Part shown: positions 15,643 through 28,268 of the stretch, piece after piece
Position numbering within the stretch: position 1 is the stretch's first letter
Layout of the letters: the number at the start of each line of letters is the position of its first letter
Assembly (NCBI GenBank): GCA_007376485.1
Contig: VMGJ01000008.1
Coordinates: forward strand, 1 to 33,964
Length of the DNA stretch: 33,964 bases
From: Parcubacteria group bacterium Licking1014_17
Lineage (GTDB): Bacteria; Patescibacteriota; Minisyncoccia; 2-02-FULL-40-12; IGHO2-01-FULL-4-A
Direction of reading: 5' to 3'
Notes under the pieces: generated by a model
Databases searched by the model: none
Seen by the model: the letters and a program-made list of their open reading frames with translations, nothing else
What the model was told of the DNA's origin: nothing
Position numbers and translations under genes: made by a program

Positions 15643-15712
15643 GTATTCTTGAATTAGTCCGAACGCATTTCGCCGCAGGCGGCGAAAGCGGTTCGGACTA
15701 ATTCAAGAATAC
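15643..15712. repeat. Large palindrome (about 31 bp of stem)
   Basis: Outer arms GTATTCTTGAATTAGTCCGAAC (15643-15664; 22 bp, perfect inverse at 15691-15712), a 3x3 internal mismatch, then TTTCGCCGC / GCGGCGAAA. There is no U-tract on either side, so it is not a standard terminator. It sits between the VanW stop and the left end of the recombinase element, one base before GCACCA at 15714. It may be a transcription block, an insertion or a recombination-linked structure. Confidence 0.85.
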
Positions 15713-15713
15713 T

Positions 15714-15814
15714 GCACCACGTAGGAAATTGCAAGTTTGTAAGGTTCGCCTCGCTTCGCTCGGCGACTAATTTGTATTCAATTTTGGGGGCAAAAACGAA
15801 TTGGCGGTTTCGCA
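15714..15814 (-). repeat. Left inverted copy of the recombinase 3' end
   Basis: Bases 15743-15814 are a perfect 72-bp inverted copy of 17209-17280. Outside this, a 23-base stretch with 11 matches (including CTTG and TTTCCT) and then GCACCA (15714-15719) mirror the right end, where 23 bases and TGGTGC (17304-17309) follow. Read on the minus strand, the copy stays in frame with the recombinase tail (A-N-x-x-x-L-x-F-P-x-W-C). So it is probably the 3' remnant of a second recombinase gene in the opposite direction. Confidence 0.85.
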
Positions 15815-15848
15815 TTTTGGGGGAAAGAAAATTTTTAATTCAAACACT

Positions 15849-17396
15849 ATGAAATACATACTTTACGCAAGAAAATCTACCGAGGAGGACGACAGACAAG
15901 TGCTTTCGATTGAAGCCCAGTTTGTTGAGTTAAAAGAATTTGCCGCCAAAGAAAAACTTGAAATTGTCGCTTCCTTTCAGGAAGCAAAAACTGCCAAAGA
16001 ACCTGGACGAATTAAATTCGCAGAAATGTTGTCGCTAATTGAAAGAGGAAAGGCGGACGGGATAATTTCTTGGCATCCGGATCGTCTCGCTCGCAACTCG
16101 GTAGACGGCGGAAAGATTATCTATTTTGTAGATCGCGGCCTGATTAAGTCCCTCAAATTTCCCACTTTTTGGTTTGAACCTACGCCGCAAGGTTTGTTTA
16201 TGTTGAATATCGCTTTTGGCCAATCAAAATATTTTGTGGACAATTTGCGAGAGAATGTGAAGCGCGGTTTGAGGCAGAAAATACGAAATGGTGTGTGGCC
16301 CGGTTGGGCTCCGGTGGGCTATCTTAATAACCCCAAGACACGCGGTATTGATGTTGATGGTGATAAAGCACCAAAAGTCCGCAAATTGTTTGAAATGTAT
16401 GCCACCGGAGCATACACCCTCCATTCTCTCGCAAATTGGTGCAAGGAACACGACTTATGCGGTAACCTCGGCAAAGAGATAGCGTTGAGTAATGTGCAAA
16501 GTATTCTACAAAATATTTTCTACATCGGATTCATGAAATATGGTGGGGAAATTCATGAGGGACAGCACGAGCCGTTAATTTCAAAGAAACTTTTTGATAA
16601 ATGCCAAGAAGTGATGGAAAAGCGTGGAAAATTCCATCATGTGAGAAAAAACAATTTTGCTTTTCTTGGCCTCTTGAAATGCGCTTCGTGCGGTTGTTCA
16701 ATTACCGCCGAGAAACAGAAAGGTCATCACTATTACCGATGCACTCGCAAAAAAGGACTTTGCCAAGAAAAGCATTATTTGAGAGAAGAAGCACTAACCG
16801 AGCAAATCAGAACATTTCTGAAAAAAGTTTCTTTATCGAGTCAAGACACCGAAAAAGTTTTGGCGGTGTTGGACAGCGAGCAGGATAAAGCGCGACAGGA
16901 CGCACAAGGGGAGGTTATTATTCTGAAAGAGCGGTTAGCACAGGATCAGGCAAAACTTCAAAAGCTGTTGGACATCTATCTCGCCGACGCTTTATCCACA
17001 GAAGAATACGCCGCCAAAAAACAGAGTTTATTGTCTCAAAAAGTTTCGTTATCTGAGAAAATTAACGATTTTGAAACAAAAGGGTTGTCTTGGCTCGAAC
17101 CGGCTCGTGAATTCGTAAAATCCTTAAATCAAGCCGCTAATCTGCTTTCCTCTCAAAACAAATCGGAAATGACAACATTTCTGAAAAACATCGGCTCGAA
17201 CCATATTTTGCGAAACCGCCAATTCGTTTTTGCCCCCAAAATTGAATACAAATTAGTCGCCGAGCGAAGCGAGGCGAACCAAAACTCCTTGACTTTTCCT
17301 TTCTGGTGCCCGGGGTCGGATTCGAACCGACACGCCTTACGGCACGAAGTCCTAAGCTTCGCGCGTCTGCCAGTTTCGCCACCCGGGCTTAATTAA
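15849..17396 (+). CDS. Large serine recombinase (site-specific recombinase)
   Basis: A 515-residue DNA recombinase. The catalytic resolvase domain (about 1-150) has YARKS with nucleophile Ser10 and WHPDRLARN with active-site Arg. A recombinase domain (about 170-270), a zinc ribbon with CASCG and a later Cys pair (about 278-310) and a coiled-coil region (about 335-430) follow. ATG 15849 is preferred over a TTG at 15801 that lies inside the inverted repeat. The reading frame has no stop of its own: it runs through the right inverted repeat and then through tRNA-Leu in antisense (tail with WCPGSDSNRHALR), stopping 8 bases beyond it. No cargo genes are present. Confidence 0.93.
   Translation: MKYILYARKSTEEDDRQVLSIEAQFVELKEFAAKEKLEIVASFQEAKTAKEPGRIKFAEMLSLIERGKADGIISWHPDRLARNSVDGGKIIYFVDRGLIKSLKFPTFWFEPTPQGLFMLNIAFGQSKYFVDNLRENVKRGLRQKIRNGVWPGWAPVGYLNNPKTRGIDVDGDKAPKVRKLFEMYATGAYTLHSLANWCKEHDLCGNLGKEIALSNVQSILQNIFYIGFMKYGGEIHEGQHEPLISKKLFDKCQEVMEKRGKFHHVRKNNFAFLGLLKCASCGCSITAEKQKGHHYYRCTRKKGLCQEKHYLREEALTEQIRTFLKKVSLSSQDTEKVLAVLDSEQDKARQDAQGEVIILKERLAQDQAKLQKLLDIYLADALSTEEYAAKKQSLLSQKVSLSEKINDFETKGLSWLEPAREFVKSLNQAANLLSSQNKSEMTTFLKNIGSNHILRNRQFVFAPKIEYKLVAERSEANQNSLTFPFWCPGSDSNRHALRHEVLSFARLPVSPPGLN
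17209..17309 (+). repeat. Right inverted repeat of the recombinase element
   Basis: The mate of the left repeat. 17209-17280 is the perfect 72-bp part and lies inside the recombinase coding sequence (residues of QFVFAPKIEYKLVAERSEAN). The next 23 bases are partly conserved, and TGGTGC (17304-17309) is the 3' end of tRNA-Leu. The junction with the tRNA 3' end marks this as the probable attachment-site side of the element. Confidence 0.85.
17304..17388 (-). tRNA. tRNA-Leu (anticodon UAG)
   Basis: 85 bases on the minus strand, class II with a long variable arm. Acceptor GCCCGGG / CCCGGGC, discriminator A and encoded CCA (17306-17304). The anticodon stem CGAAG/CTTCG closes the loop CTTAGGA with anticodon TAG. 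The T-arm is GTCGG-TTCGAAT-CCGAC. The whole gene is overlapped in antisense by the recombinase reading frame. Confidence 0.93.
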
Positions 17397-25330: not shown

Positions 25331-26128
25331 TTACAATATTGTTTTTTTGTTTTCGTATAACATGGGCAGATAATCTTGTCTCATTCGGAATTTAGTGCCG
25401 TGATTGTGCCCTGTACGTGCGTCAAAATCCACCAGAATTTTGCCTTGCCCCAATGCTTTCAAAAATCCCTCGAAGCTGAATCTACGCAACATCATTACTT
25501 TGTTGTATTTGTAATATTCTTTTCCGCGTTCCTTCTTCACGTCAGCTTGAACGTAAAAAGCATTGAGTAATTTTGTCCCTGCTTTATGTTTCAAATCATC
25601 AAAGCCCCAGTACGGTTGCGGGCTAAGTTCGTTAAGTCCAATACGTTTTTTGACTGATTCGAGCCATTTTTTGTGTCTGCTATCAACACTGCCAGAATTA
25701 AACGAAATTAAAATTTTCTTAGCCTTGCGATTAATCACAACCTTAAATCCGCGATCGCTTCGCGATCGGCCGTGAATTGTTTGCCGAAAGCTCATCTCAT
25801 TTCTGGGGTAAAGTTTTCCGGCTTCCTCGTGCGGCCAACCATATTTTAATAAGAGAACCTGTGGTACAAATTTGATGGCACGCGGCGAAGGTTCAATATG
25901 GAAAAGTGTTGTTAATGACGAAGTGTTTCTACGCTGAGTTTTTAATTCCCACTCGGTTGCATTCGGTATGGGTAAATTATTTTCTTCAATGCCGAGTAAA
26001 TCCTCAAGAGTATTGCCAATACCACCGGCATTACCCCGTCTTGCGTTTGGGATCCAGCCCATTGCTGAAATCTTCTTGAGCTTATTTATCAATCCCTGTT
26101 TTGTGTAAATTTTAGGCCCTTTCGTCAT
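25331..26128 (-). CDS. Type II restriction endonuclease, MvaI/BcnI family
   Basis: A 265-residue endonuclease. The family signature is the N-terminal segment GGIGNTLEDLLGI (about 35-47) followed by ATEWELKTQRRNTSSLTTLF (57-76), where the E-L-K triad gives the metal-binding active site. MvaI and BcnI cut CCWGG and CCSGG as monomers, nicking one strand at a time; the specificity here cannot be read. It lies 2 bases after the methyltransferase gene and is co-transcribed with it, so the methylase is made first, as expected for safe establishment. Length equals the family norm. Confidence 0.88.
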   Translation of the reverse strand: MTKGPKIYTKQGLINKLKKISAMGWIPNARRGNAGGIGNTLEDLLGIEENNLPIPNATEWELKTQRRNTSSLTTLFHIEPSPRAIKFVPQVLLLKYGWPHEEAGKLYPRNEMSFRQTIHGRSRSDRGFKVVINRKAKKILISFNSGSVDSRHKKWLESVKKRIGLNELSPQPYWGFDDLKHKAGTKLLNAFYVQADVKKERGKEYYKYNKVMMLRRFSFEGFLKALGQGKILVDFDARTGHNHGTKFRMRQDYLPMLYENKKTIL

Positions 26129-26130
26129 GG

Positions 26131-26877
26131 CTATAATAGCTTAATCTGGGGCTTATGGTGTTTTATTCTCTTTAATGCCATACCGCAGTATTCTGGCGAA
26201 ATATCAATCCCGATATAATCTCGCTTGAAATTGATCGCAGAAATAGCAGTGGTACCCGAACCCATAAATGGGTCCAAAATAATTTTTGCATTTGTGGAAG
26301 AAACAATCCTGTTTATAAGATTTACTGGAAAGGCAGCCGGGTGTTCGTTTTTCATTTCTTGAGTAAATTCCCAAACGTCTCCGTGTGCATTTGCTTTCGG
26401 AGATAGTTTGAATTTCGGCTTTGCGATCACATAAATGACTTCGTATGTTGGCAGAAAATAACCGGGATTAAAATTGAGACCACCTTTTCTCTTCCAAATA
26501 ATAATTTGCCGCACCGGAAATCCATTTACAATATCCTGCCTGTCTTGAAGCAAACCATCTTGGACCCGCCACTTATGATTGTAAAAAATCGCACCCGTGC
26601 CAGGAATAACGCGCATCATTTCAGTAAGACATTTTCTCTGCCAATTTACATACTCTTCGTGTGGCATGCAATCATTATAATTAGCATATCCTTTTTGAAG
26701 TGCCGCATTTGCCCATTTGCCGCCCCGACCATCTTTGAGTCCGTTTCCGGTGGAATTTTTGATATTGTAAGGCGGCGAAGTGATAACCAAATCCGTGGCT
26801 CCGTCTGGTATTTTTTTCATCACCTCAACGACATCGCCACAGATTATTTTGTTTATAAAATCATTAGGCCATTTCAT
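26131..26877 (-). CDS. DNA methyltransferase (probably N4-cytosine) of the MvaI/BcnI-type system
   Basis: A 248-residue beta-class amino-methyltransferase. Motif order is IV (TSPPY, 33-37) before I (DPFMGSGTT, 202-210), with VFYN/IFYNHKWR and GVDIS-like GIDISPEY after it. TSPPY is the usual catalytic motif of N4-cytosine methylases, which agrees with the known partners of MvaI and BcnI. There is no separate target-recognition domain beyond the region between the motifs. It protects host DNA from the adjacent endonuclease. Codon use looks more AT-rich than that of gyrA, in line with recent acquisition (impression only). Confidence 0.9.
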   Translation of the reverse strand: MKWPNDFINKIICGDVVEVMKKIPDGATDLVITSPPYNIKNSTGNGLKDGRGGKWANAALQKGYANYNDCMPHEEYVNWQRKCLTEMMRVIPGTGAIFYNHKWRVQDGLLQDRQDIVNGFPVRQIIIWKRKGGLNFNPGYFLPTYEVIYVIAKPKFKLSPKANAHGDVWEFTQEMKNEHPAAFPVNLINRIVSSTNAKIILDPFMGSGTTAISAINFKRDYIGIDISPEYCGMALKRIKHHKPQIKLL

Positions 26878-26913: not shown

Positions 26914-26940
26914 AGTTCAATGGCGAAAAGTTGAACGTGA

Positions 26941-27075
26941 GCCGACTCTTTTTCGGGCTATTGAGATTGTTGCCAGCATGGTTTTGTCAACGGCTGGAAT
27001 GCCTTGACAAATGGCGGCAATCTCACAGATGGATTTTCGTCGCTGGCGAAAATCCAGTCCCGAAAAAGGGTTGGC
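26941..27075 (+). ncRNA. Predicted structured RNA with a three-way junction, upstream of the S1 gene
   Basis: 135 bases fold by eye into a closed three-way junction. P1 is 17 bp (26941-26957 with 27059-27075). P2 is 13 bp (26962-26974 with 27013-27025), capped by an 8-bp helix (26983-26990 with 27004-27011). P3 is 10 bp (27030-27039 with 27047-27056). The joints are 4, 4 and 2 bases. All four non-Watson-Crick pairs (26944-27072, 26947-27069, 26970-27017, 26971-27016) are G.U only when read as plus-strand RNA; on the minus strand they would be A.C. It ends 62 bases before the S1 start codon. It is either a 5' leader or a free-standing RNA. No known class is recognised. Confidence 0.65.
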
Positions 27076-27109
27076 GAGCAATAGATAAAACGATCCGTCG
27101 GCTTGCGAT

Positions 27110-27176
27110 GCTAATAATATCGTGTTATTCTCCCTGAATGGATTCAATCTACAACAACGCCGCTAATAATATCGTG
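27110..27176 (+). repeat. 15-bp direct repeat around the S1 start codon
   Basis: GCTAATAATATCGTG occurs at 27110-27124 (14 bases before the S1 ATG) and again at 27162-27176 (codons 9-13 of the gene). The first copy fills the gap between a TTGCGA (27104-27109) and a TATTCT (27126-27131), a weak promoter. It may be a repeated binding site or a small duplication. Confidence 0.6.
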
Positions 27177-28268
27177 ATAAAAGAACTTCTGGCGAGGGCG
27201 GAATACGGTTTACCAAAGCCGGGGCAGATTCTTGAGGGCGCCGTTATTTCAAGTAATAAAAATATGGTTCTCGTGGACCTCGGAATGTTCGGAATCGGAG
27301 TCGTCTACCCCGGCGAATTTTATGATAACCCTGACCTCCAAAAATCCATCAAGAAAGGACAAAATGTTTCCGCCATTCTTTTGGAAGTGGAAAACGCCGA
27401 CGGCTACCGCGAGCTCTCGCTCAAACGGGCTCAGGTTATGACCGCGTGGGAATACATAAGAGGCAAAAAGGAAAGCGGCGAAATAATAACGACCAAGGTG
27501 ATAAACATCAACAAGGGCGGATTGATTGTTGAGATCAGCGGCATCCAGGGATTTTTGCCTTTGTCCCAGCTTGCCCCGAACCACTATCCAAAAGTTGGCA
27601 GCGGCAACACTTCGCTGATCGTTCAGGCGCTTCAGAAATTCAGAGGGCAGGATTTTCAAATCAGGATAATCGATTACTCCGAAACAGATAATAAATTAAT
27701 CGTTTCCGAAAAAGCGGCTTTTGACGACAAACTGAAAGAAAAAATCGCCAAACTTAAAGTCGGCGACACGGTCAGCGGCACCATTACGGACGTCACCGAT
27801 TTCGGAGCTTTTGTCGCCATAAATATTCCGGGCGAGCCGGCGACTGAAGCCAACCCCGAAACGCCGGCGACCGACAGGCTTGAAGGACTTATCCATATTT
27901 CCGAAATAGACTGGAAAATAGTCGAGAACCCGCGCGACTTTCTGGCGGCGGGACAGGAGGTACAGGCAAAAATCACGAATATCGAAGGAACGAAAGTTTC
28001 GCTGTCACTGAAGGCGCTAAAAGCCGACCCATGGGCAAACGCGGAAAACACCACGCCGGTTGGCACCAAGACCGAAGGCGAAGTCGTAAAAGTCACCAAT
28101 TACGGATTACTGGTATCCCTGCCCAATAATATTTTGGGGCTGATACCGGCCGCTGAACTAAACCAGAGAAAGCCGGAAGAGACGCCGAAATTAGGCCAGA
28201 AAGTTCCGGTCGCTATTATTTCAATAGACCCCGCTGACCATAAAATGCTTCTGACTCTCTTGTCGTAA
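27138..28268 (+). CDS. rpsA: S1 RNA-binding domain protein (ribosomal protein S1-like)
   Basis: A 376-residue protein with four S1 (OB-fold) domains at about residues 29-97, 113-190, 205-290 and 303-376. Each has the pattern G..V.G.V......G..V......G....SE or a variant: GQILEGAVISSNKNMVLVDL, GGLIVEISGIQGFLPLSQL, GDTVSGTITDVTDFGAFVAI and GTKTEGEVVKVTNYGLLVSL. Domain 3 has an insert (PGEPATEANPETPATDR) in its loop. E. coli S1 has six domains; four is common in smaller bacteria. S1 holds mRNA on the 30S subunit and helps start on mRNAs lacking Shine-Dalgarno sites, which fits the rarity of such sites here. A terminator follows 27 bases after the stop. Confidence 0.9.
   Translation: MDSIYNNAANNIVIKELLARAEYGLPKPGQILEGAVISSNKNMVLVDLGMFGIGVVYPGEFYDNPDLQKSIKKGQNVSAILLEVENADGYRELSLKRAQVMTAWEYIRGKKESGEIITTKVININKGGLIVEISGIQGFLPLSQLAPNHYPKVGSGNTSLIVQALQKFRGQDFQIRIIDYSETDNKLIVSEKAAFDDKLKEKIAKLKVGDTVSGTITDVTDFGAFVAINIPGEPATEANPETPATDRLEGLIHISEIDWKIVENPRDFLAAGQEVQAKITNIEGTKVSLSLKALKADPWANAENTTPVGTKTEGEVVKVTNYGLLVSLPNNILGLIPAAELNQRKPEETPKLGQKVPVAIISIDPADHKMLLTLLS

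What the first reader, a model, noticed from the sequence alone, without database searches (positions are those of the whole stretch)
26941..27075. Undescribed three-way-junction RNA candidate in front of the S1 gene
A 135-base segment folds into a compact three-way junction with stems of 17, 13 (+8) and 10 bp and only 10 unpaired joint bases. All four mismatches from strict complementarity become G.U pairs on the plus strand only, which argues for selection on a plus-strand RNA rather than a chance palindrome. It lies 62 bases before an S1-type gene and after the R-M operon. S1 genes are autoregulated through their leaders in some bacteria, so a cis-acting leader is one option. A stand-alone RNA or a decayed mobile element is another.
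Basis: partly seen in the sequence, partly recalled or inferred. Interest (0 to 1): 0.75.

Follow-up and report, generated by a model that had tools for sequence, protein, structure and literature searches.

The report
Dispersed three-way-junction RNA repeat family
The 135-base fold in front of the S1 gene is one of at least 61 copies of an apparently undescribed folded element scattered through this tiny bacterium's genome and found in many of its relatives; evolution keeps its shape and two loops but not its letters, which points to a new kind of RNA-like repeat rather than a switch for the S1 gene.

Summary
The fold is real (-76.2 kcal/mol, z -9.5), but it is not an S1 leader. It is one of at least 61 copies (three subfamilies) in this 790-kb Patescibacteria genome. 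The family occurs in 67 of 286 sampled genomes of the class and sporadically in other classes of the phylum. S1 loci of named relatives (Ca. Yanofskybacteria) lack it.

Covariation is extreme. In a 65-sequence alignment all 54 pairs change on both sides and 91% of cells stay paired. A bulge (GCNNGG) and a hairpin loop (CGCNGG) hardly vary. G.U outnumbers A.C 129:40, whichever way the neighbouring gene runs, so the plus strand is the one selected to fold. At three sites occupied in both of two relatives, 18 pairs changed on both sides in place (about 3 expected by permutation).

Copies sit a few to ~60 nt past a stop codon, antisense to that gene (44:11), sometimes inside operons such as rplN-rplX. 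Nine of eleven comparable sites in two congeneric genomes are empty in one, so copies come and go.

No Rfam, attC or REP membership; no Y1 transposase in this genome; no earlier description found in the open-licence literature searched. Identity as a new dispersed structured family is well supported. Function is inferred: a strand-specific RNA (less likely ssDNA) signal read by an unknown factor.

The parts
26941..27075 (+). Whole three-way-junction element, subfamily A copy (extends to 26937-27079 if the outer tandem G.A pairs are counted)
   Evidence: R2 score 121.6 bits, E 3e-27
26941..26957 (+). Stem P1, 5' arm (GCCGACTCTTTTTCGGG)
   Evidence: pairs with 27059-27075; 11 of the 16 P1 pairs counted change on both sides among 14 own-genome copies
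27059..27075 (+). Stem P1, 3' arm (CCCGAAAAAGGGTTGGC)
26962..26975 (+). Stem P2a, 5' side; pairs with 27012-27025 (26958-26959 with 27027-27028 at its foot)
   Evidence: 12 of the 17 P2 pairs change on both sides
27012..27025 (+). Stem P2a, 3' side
26976..26982 (+). Seven-base bulge GCATGGT, nearly invariant in the family (GC 61/64 each, GG 62/64 and 64/64)
   Evidence: columns 42-48 of A6
26983..27011 (+). Stem P2b/P2c hairpin (26983-26990 with 27004-27011; 26992-26994 with 27001-27003), apical loop variable in length and sequence
   Evidence: loop lengths differ among copies
27030..27056 (+). Stem-loop P3: 27030-27039 pairs with 27047-27056
   Evidence: 7 of 10 pairs change on both sides
27040..27046 (+). 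P3 loop TCGCTGG, nearly invariant (C 62/63, G 63/63, C 61/61, T 51/61, G 61/61, G 61/61)
   Evidence: columns 176-182 of A6
27138..28268 (+). S1-domain protein gene, neighbour only, not part of the element
   Evidence: PF00575, 3 repeats
25331..26877 (-). MvaI/BcnI-type restriction-modification pair, neighbour only; absent from the syntenic relative

Best explanation
This is one copy of a large, dispersed family of structured elements of Patescibacteria. The plus strand folds into a three-way junction: an outer stem P1, an arm P2 with a 7-nt bulge (GCNNGGU) and an arm P3 with the loop UCGCUGG. Shown: many copies, gain and loss of sites, selection on the fold of one strand, near-invariant bulge and loop, and a position a few to ~60 nt past a stop codon, antisense to that gene. 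Inferred: the bulge and the loop are the contacts of one RNA-binding factor, and the stems only hold them in place. Once inserted, a copy works as a strand-specific RNA signal on transcripts that run through it in the plus direction. Next to a gene's 3' end these are transcripts heading antisense into that gene, so the copy would stop or process antisense and read-through RNA while leaving sense transcription of the operon alone. In this window the copy lies between two divergent genes and would act on RNA running toward S1 from upstream.
For: Fold z -9.5. At least 61 copies in the genome. Covariation in 14 own-genome copies: 33 of 54 pairs with both-side changes, 0/500 shuffles, slid controls at most 48% paired. 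In 65 sequences: 54/54 pairs, 1193 double-change cells against 336 shuffled. Near-invariant bulge and loop. G.U:A.C 129:40 and 81:25, the same sign for antisense (34:12), sense (11:3), convergent (14:3) and divergent (10:3) copies, so it follows the element's strand and not a mutational bias of the gene's strand. In-place double changes at three sites shared by two relatives: 6, 7 and 5, permutation means about 1, 0/2000 each. Nearest stop antisense 44:11 here and 33:11 in relatives; the excess is similar for genes on the minority strand (9:3), so it follows the gene and not the replication direction. Copies lie inside rplN-rplX in two species, so the element cannot be a sense-direction terminator there. 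No terminator-like U-run on either side.
Against: No transcript data; nothing shows that the plus strand is transcribed, and no promoter of its own was recognised (one search is only a consensus scan of the window copy). Nine of eleven comparable sites in two congeneric genomes are empty in one, which fits a dispensable or mobile element better than a needed host function. Antisense orientation could also come from the insertion mechanism or from removal of sense copies. Single-stranded DNA would also tolerate G.T better than A.C. The plus-strand preference is equally present in sense and divergent copies, so the preferred place is not what selects the fold. The in-place structure of each shared site was taken from one of the two sequences.
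Confidence: 0.4

Rival explanations
1. Recombination or transposition site that folds as single-stranded DNA. A recombinase or HUH-type nuclease recognises the bulge and loop of the folded strand antisense to the gene, as IntI does with the folded bottom strand of integron attC sites; copies move by this enzyme and the stems vary freely.
For: Gain and loss of sites, nested copies and half copies, position after stop codons with the folded strand antisense to the gene. In integrons the bottom strand of attC is the recombining one and in most sedentary arrays lies on the leading-strand template (PMC5371416).
Against: No attC core boxes in any of 44 copies. No Y1 transposase in this 99.75% complete genome with at least 61 copies, while several copy-poor genomes have one. 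Orientation follows the gene, not the replichore proxy. Mobility alone does not explain compensatory change in place at sites shared since two species split.
Confidence: 0.25
2. Family of stand-alone non-coding RNAs: multi-copy trans-acting RNAs, each with its own promoter, spread by duplication.
For: Near-invariant unpaired motifs, strong covariation and plus-strand G.U excess are typical of functional RNAs.
Against: No conserved sequence outside the outer stem and no recognisable promoter was noticed among the aligned copies; positions cluster against stop codons of unrelated genes in one orientation. More than 60 paralogues per 790 kb would be unusual for a trans-acting RNA.
Confidence: 0.15
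3. Mostly selfish dispersed repeat (MITE- or REP-like) with no function at its site; perfect stems are maintained by template-switch correction of imperfect palindromes, and sense copies are removed because the plus-strand fold harms the mRNA.
For: High copy number, patchy presence, nested insertions, empty sites; copies collect where insertion does least harm.
Against: Template-switch correction treats both strands alike and does not explain G.U over A.C (129:40) or the near-invariant loops. No terminal sequence conservation at the ends and no clear target-site duplication at the rplN site.
Confidence: 0.15
4. Cis-acting S1 leader that controls the S1 gene in the window.
For: Position 62 nt before the S1 start in this genome only.
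Against: S1 loci of relatives lack it; the other copies sit beside unrelated genes.
Confidence: 0.03

Closest known systems
REP / BIME repeats (repetitive extragenic palindromes) with RAYT transposases
   Same: High-copy extragenic palindromic elements, mostly downstream of genes between tandem or convergent genes, with mosaic and nested arrangements (PMC3733652).
   Different: About 135 nt three-way junction instead of 20-40 bp hairpins; no GTAG or CGTC tag family resemblance was apparent; no Y1/RAYT gene in this genome; compensatory change at fixed sites; near-invariant internal bulge and loop.
Integron attC sites
   Same: Structure conserved while sequence varies; one strand folds; lies just after a stop codon with the folded strand antisense to the gene (PMC5371416).
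   Different: Three-way junction with near-invariant internal motifs instead of one imperfect hairpin with R boxes; boxes not found (0 of 44); next to housekeeping genes, not in a cassette array.
Structured bacterial RNA families of Rfam
   Same: Covarying helices with conserved unpaired motifs.
   Different: No Rfam family matches at gathering score or at E <= 1 apart from chance-level hits to unrelated families.
Intrinsic transcription terminators
   Same: Strong hairpin shortly after a stop codon.
   Different: No U-run after either strand's stem; found inside operons; selected strand is the antisense one.

Membership tests
S1 (rpsA) leader RNA | Conserved upstream of S1 genes of relatives | tested here: not met
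   Two Ca. Yanofskybacteria S1 loci without an element
S1 (rpsA) leader RNA | One locus per genome | tested here: not met
   61 copies
Integron attC | RYYYAAC / GTTRRRY boxes at the foot of the folded site | tested here: not met
   0 of 44 copies
Integron attC | Folded strand antisense to the gene it follows | tested here: met
   44:11 and 33:11
Integron attC | Recombination by an IntI-type integrase | not tested
   Tyrosine recombinases were not surveyed
REP / RAYT system | RAYT (Y1_Tnp, PF01797) gene in the genome | tested here: not met
   0 matches in G000; present in 20 of 30 genomes searched, including copy-poor ones
REP / RAYT system | 20-40 bp palindrome with GTAG/CGTC tag | tested here: not met
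   Length and architecture; definition from PMC3733652. The tag itself was judged by eye only
DNA transposon-type MITE | Conserved terminal inverted repeats with a target-site duplication | tested here: inconclusive
   Outer arms differ from copy to copy; rplN empty and occupied sites show no clear duplication
Intrinsic terminator | Hairpin followed by a U-run | tested here: not met
   5 or more T in the first 7 nt in 1 of 44 (plus) and 2 of 44 (minus)
Structured RNA family in general | Base-pair covariation beyond controls, with conserved unpaired motifs | tested here: met
Structured RNA family in general | Transcribed as RNA | not testable with these tools
   No transcriptome available here
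Known Rfam family | Score above a family's gathering cut-off | tested here: not met

The most novel reading that the evidence does not exclude
A new class of strand-specific cis-acting RNA element of Patescibacteria. It spreads through genomes, docks just past stop codons in antisense orientation, and once there is held by selection as an RNA roadblock or processing site for antisense and read-through transcripts, read by an unknown protein through a GCNNGG bulge and a CGCNGG loop.
Probability: 0.3. Interest if true: 0.88.

Novelty: new variant of a known kind. Interest (0 to 1): 0.74.

Why it matters
Patescibacteria have very small genomes with little non-coding DNA, yet this one keeps at least 61 copies of a 120-180 nt structured element (about one per 13 kb), and relatives carry copies even inside ribosomal-protein operons. 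The family shows unusually clear in-place compensatory evolution and two near-invariant contact motifs, so it should lead to an RNA- or ssDNA-binding factor unknown today. It also gives a ready covariance model for annotating structured repeats in a large part of bacterial diversity that Rfam does not cover.

Tried and rejected
S1 leader: rejected, S1 relatives lack it. Known RNA family: Rfam at gathering and at relaxed thresholds, only chance hits. Phage-borne copies: two pattern scans of viral contigs; the four loci that matched hold no element. Y1 transposase as mobiliser: none in G000 although it carries at least 61 copies. Small reverse transcriptases (RVT_1, 330-400 aa) are in 27 of 30 genomes including copy-less ones, so they do not discriminate; one element lies about 330 nt upstream of such a gene (L132), not followed further. 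Intrinsic terminator: no U-run, occurs inside operons. attC: no boxes. Replication-strand rule for orientation: genes on the regional minority strand follow the gene rule too, 9:3. Transcription-coupled mutation bias as the cause of the G.U excess: rejected, the excess has the same sign in sense and antisense copies. Literature: no description found in four searches of the open-licence library; subscription papers are not covered.

Full report
WHAT WAS CLAIMED AND WHETHER IT IS THERE. The 135-base stretch 26941-27075 folds on the plus strand into a three-way junction at -76.2 kcal/mol, z -9.46 against dinucleotide shuffles. The minus strand folds less well, -59.6.

IT IS REPEATED. A DNA search of the window's own genome (G000, 790,175 bases, 11 contigs; the window is contig C1 entire) with the element gave 24 matches, most of which stop near the ends of the fold. 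All contigs were read in stretches. A profile search found 16 full copies of the window's type, subfamily A. Inspection of partial hits showed a second type, B, with at least 28 copies and the same architecture but little sequence in common. A covariance model from 14 A copies (R1) then found a third type, C. A combined model (R2, 65 sequences) finds 61 copies in G000 at E <= 0.01. About 9% of the genome as held reads N, so this is a lower bound.

IT IS SELECTED FOR SHAPE. In 14 own-genome A copies, 33 of 54 pairs change on both sides, 95.1% of cells are paired, no shuffle of 500 reaches this, and slid versions fall to 36-48%. In 65 sequences from this and related genomes all 54 pairs change on both sides, 91.1% of cells pair, and 1193 cells carry double changes against 336 in shuffles. 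That second alignment was fitted to the model, which leans towards the structure; the first was not. The unpaired parts behave in the opposite way. The 7-nt bulge of arm P2 (GC, then A or T, then T or C, then GG) and the loop of arm P3 (CGC, usually T, GG) are almost invariant. Many copies also carry tandem G.A pairs in the stems near the junction.

WHICH STRAND. In stems, G.U on the plus strand outnumbers A.C 129:40 in the first combined alignment and 81:25 in the alignment of relatives. The excess has the same sign whether the copy is antisense (34:12), sense (11:3), convergent (14:3) or divergent (10:3) to its neighbours, so it is not a by-product of transcription-linked mutation. The plus strand is the one that must fold. 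G.U tolerance favours RNA but does not exclude single-stranded DNA.

WHERE IT SITS. In G000 the nearest stop codon belongs to a gene antisense to the element in 44 of 55 cases. Between co-directional genes the count is 32 antisense to 9 sense. Genes on the regional minority strand show a similar ratio (9:3), so gene direction and not replication direction is the better predictor. In relatives the nearest-stop count is 33:11, and 8 of 44 copies lie exactly 10 nt from the stop. Genes were called by a simple ORF rule, so single cases may be wrong. Neighbouring genes in relatives are ordinary housekeeping genes: recA, dnaK, tRNA synthetases, RNase J, a Mur ligase, ribosomal proteins. In two congeneric species a copy starts at the stop codon of rplN inside the ribosomal-protein operon, while another congener has only two bases between rplN and rplX there. 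The window copy is one of the minority between divergent genes.

IT COMES AND GOES, BUT IS KEPT WHERE IT STAYS. Large parts of two congeneric genomes (G001, G005) hold 32 elements. Of 11 distinct sites with a clear syntenic partner, nine are occupied in one genome only and two in both. At those two sites and at rplN (G005/G006), the paired copies differ at 15-19% of paired positions, yet 7, 5 and 6 pairs have changed on both sides and still pair, against about 1 each by permutation (0 of 2000). Over the three sites G.U cells number 23 against 3 A.C cells; the A.C cells were counted in one member of each pair only. So the fold is maintained in place. Nested copies (B inside A-like arms) and half copies show that elements also insert into each other and decay.

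HOW FAR IT REACHES. R1 hit 26 of 58 relatives. R2 hit 67 of 286 genomes of the class and 11 of 380 spread over the phylum, six of them outside the class. The large panels scored only 8-11 candidates per genome, so both prevalence and copy numbers are underestimates. The nearest named S1 relatives are Ca. Yanofskybacteria genomes.

NOT AN S1 LEADER. The S1 loci of those two named genomes have no element. One of them keeps gyrA, a hypothetical gene and the lactamase-fold gene next to S1 without the restriction-modification pair or the element.

WHAT IT IS NOT. No Rfam family. No integron core boxes (0 of 44) and no terminator U-run. No Y1 transposase in G000; small reverse transcriptases are nearly everywhere, including copy-less genomes. 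No element on the viral contigs found by pattern. No earlier description was found in the papers that could be searched.

HOW IT MIGHT WORK. Free stems with near-invariant bulge and loop suggest that stems are a scaffold and the bulge and loop are the contacts (inference). Because the fold is maintained at fixed sites, a pure transposition signal is not enough (inference). My preferred reading is a strand-specific RNA signal, acting on RNA made in the plus direction, which beside a gene's 3' end means antisense or read-through RNA. This leaves sense transcription of an operon alone and explains why copies are tolerated inside rplN-rplX. It is a proposal, not a demonstration; I give the function alone about 0.35-0.4. 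The closest alternative is an ssDNA-folding recombination site that works like attC without belonging to that family.

RELATION TO KNOWN SYSTEMS. In distribution it resembles REP repeats, which also lie mainly downstream of genes between tandem or convergent genes (PMC3733652). In strand logic it resembles attC (PMC5371416). It fails tested defining features of both. Within the general class of dispersed extragenic palindromic repeats it is a new variant: larger, a three-way junction, with RNA-style covariation in place. That it is a categorically new RNA class is possible but needs transcript evidence.

Noticed in passing
window 15743-15800 and 17223-17280: A 58-base perfect inverted repeat encloses most of a large serine recombinase gene (15801-17396, PF00239/PF07508/PF13408) beside tRNA-Leu (17304-17388): looks like a serine-recombinase mobile element.
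   Followed up: partly
window 15643-15712: Long near-perfect stem-loop (TTGAATTAGTCCGAACGC...GCGGTTCGGACTAATTCAA) with similar copies at C6:72061-72105 and C6:73188-73245 of the same genome; a second, unrelated dispersed hairpin.
   Followed up: partly
window 27110-27127 and 27162-27179: 18-base direct repeat GCTAATAATATCGTGWTA, one copy before and one inside the start of the S1 gene.
   Followed up: no
L107, L110, L111 (after the rplN stop): Other relatives carry different, unrelated-looking long inverted repeats in the same rplN-rplX gap, so this gap seems to be a hot spot for several kinds of palindromic inserts.
   Followed up: partly
L024, L025, L027 and C11:39357-39479: Nested elements: B- or C-type copies lie inside A-type outer arms; small hairpin repeats also sit in the loops of other copies (e.g. 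C11:155541-155686, C7:76070-76249).
   Followed up: partly
L045:9867-15151 (G000 C6:129867-135151): The 23S rRNA gene spans about 5.3 kb, which suggests one or more large insertions or introns.
   Followed up: no
L132 (G062 C14): A family member lies about 330 nt upstream of, and in the same direction as, a small reverse-transcriptase gene.
   Followed up: partly
G000:C8:23866-24030: A very divergent copy that groups with B lies among tRNA genes and keeps the junction, bulge and loop with changed stems.
   Followed up: no
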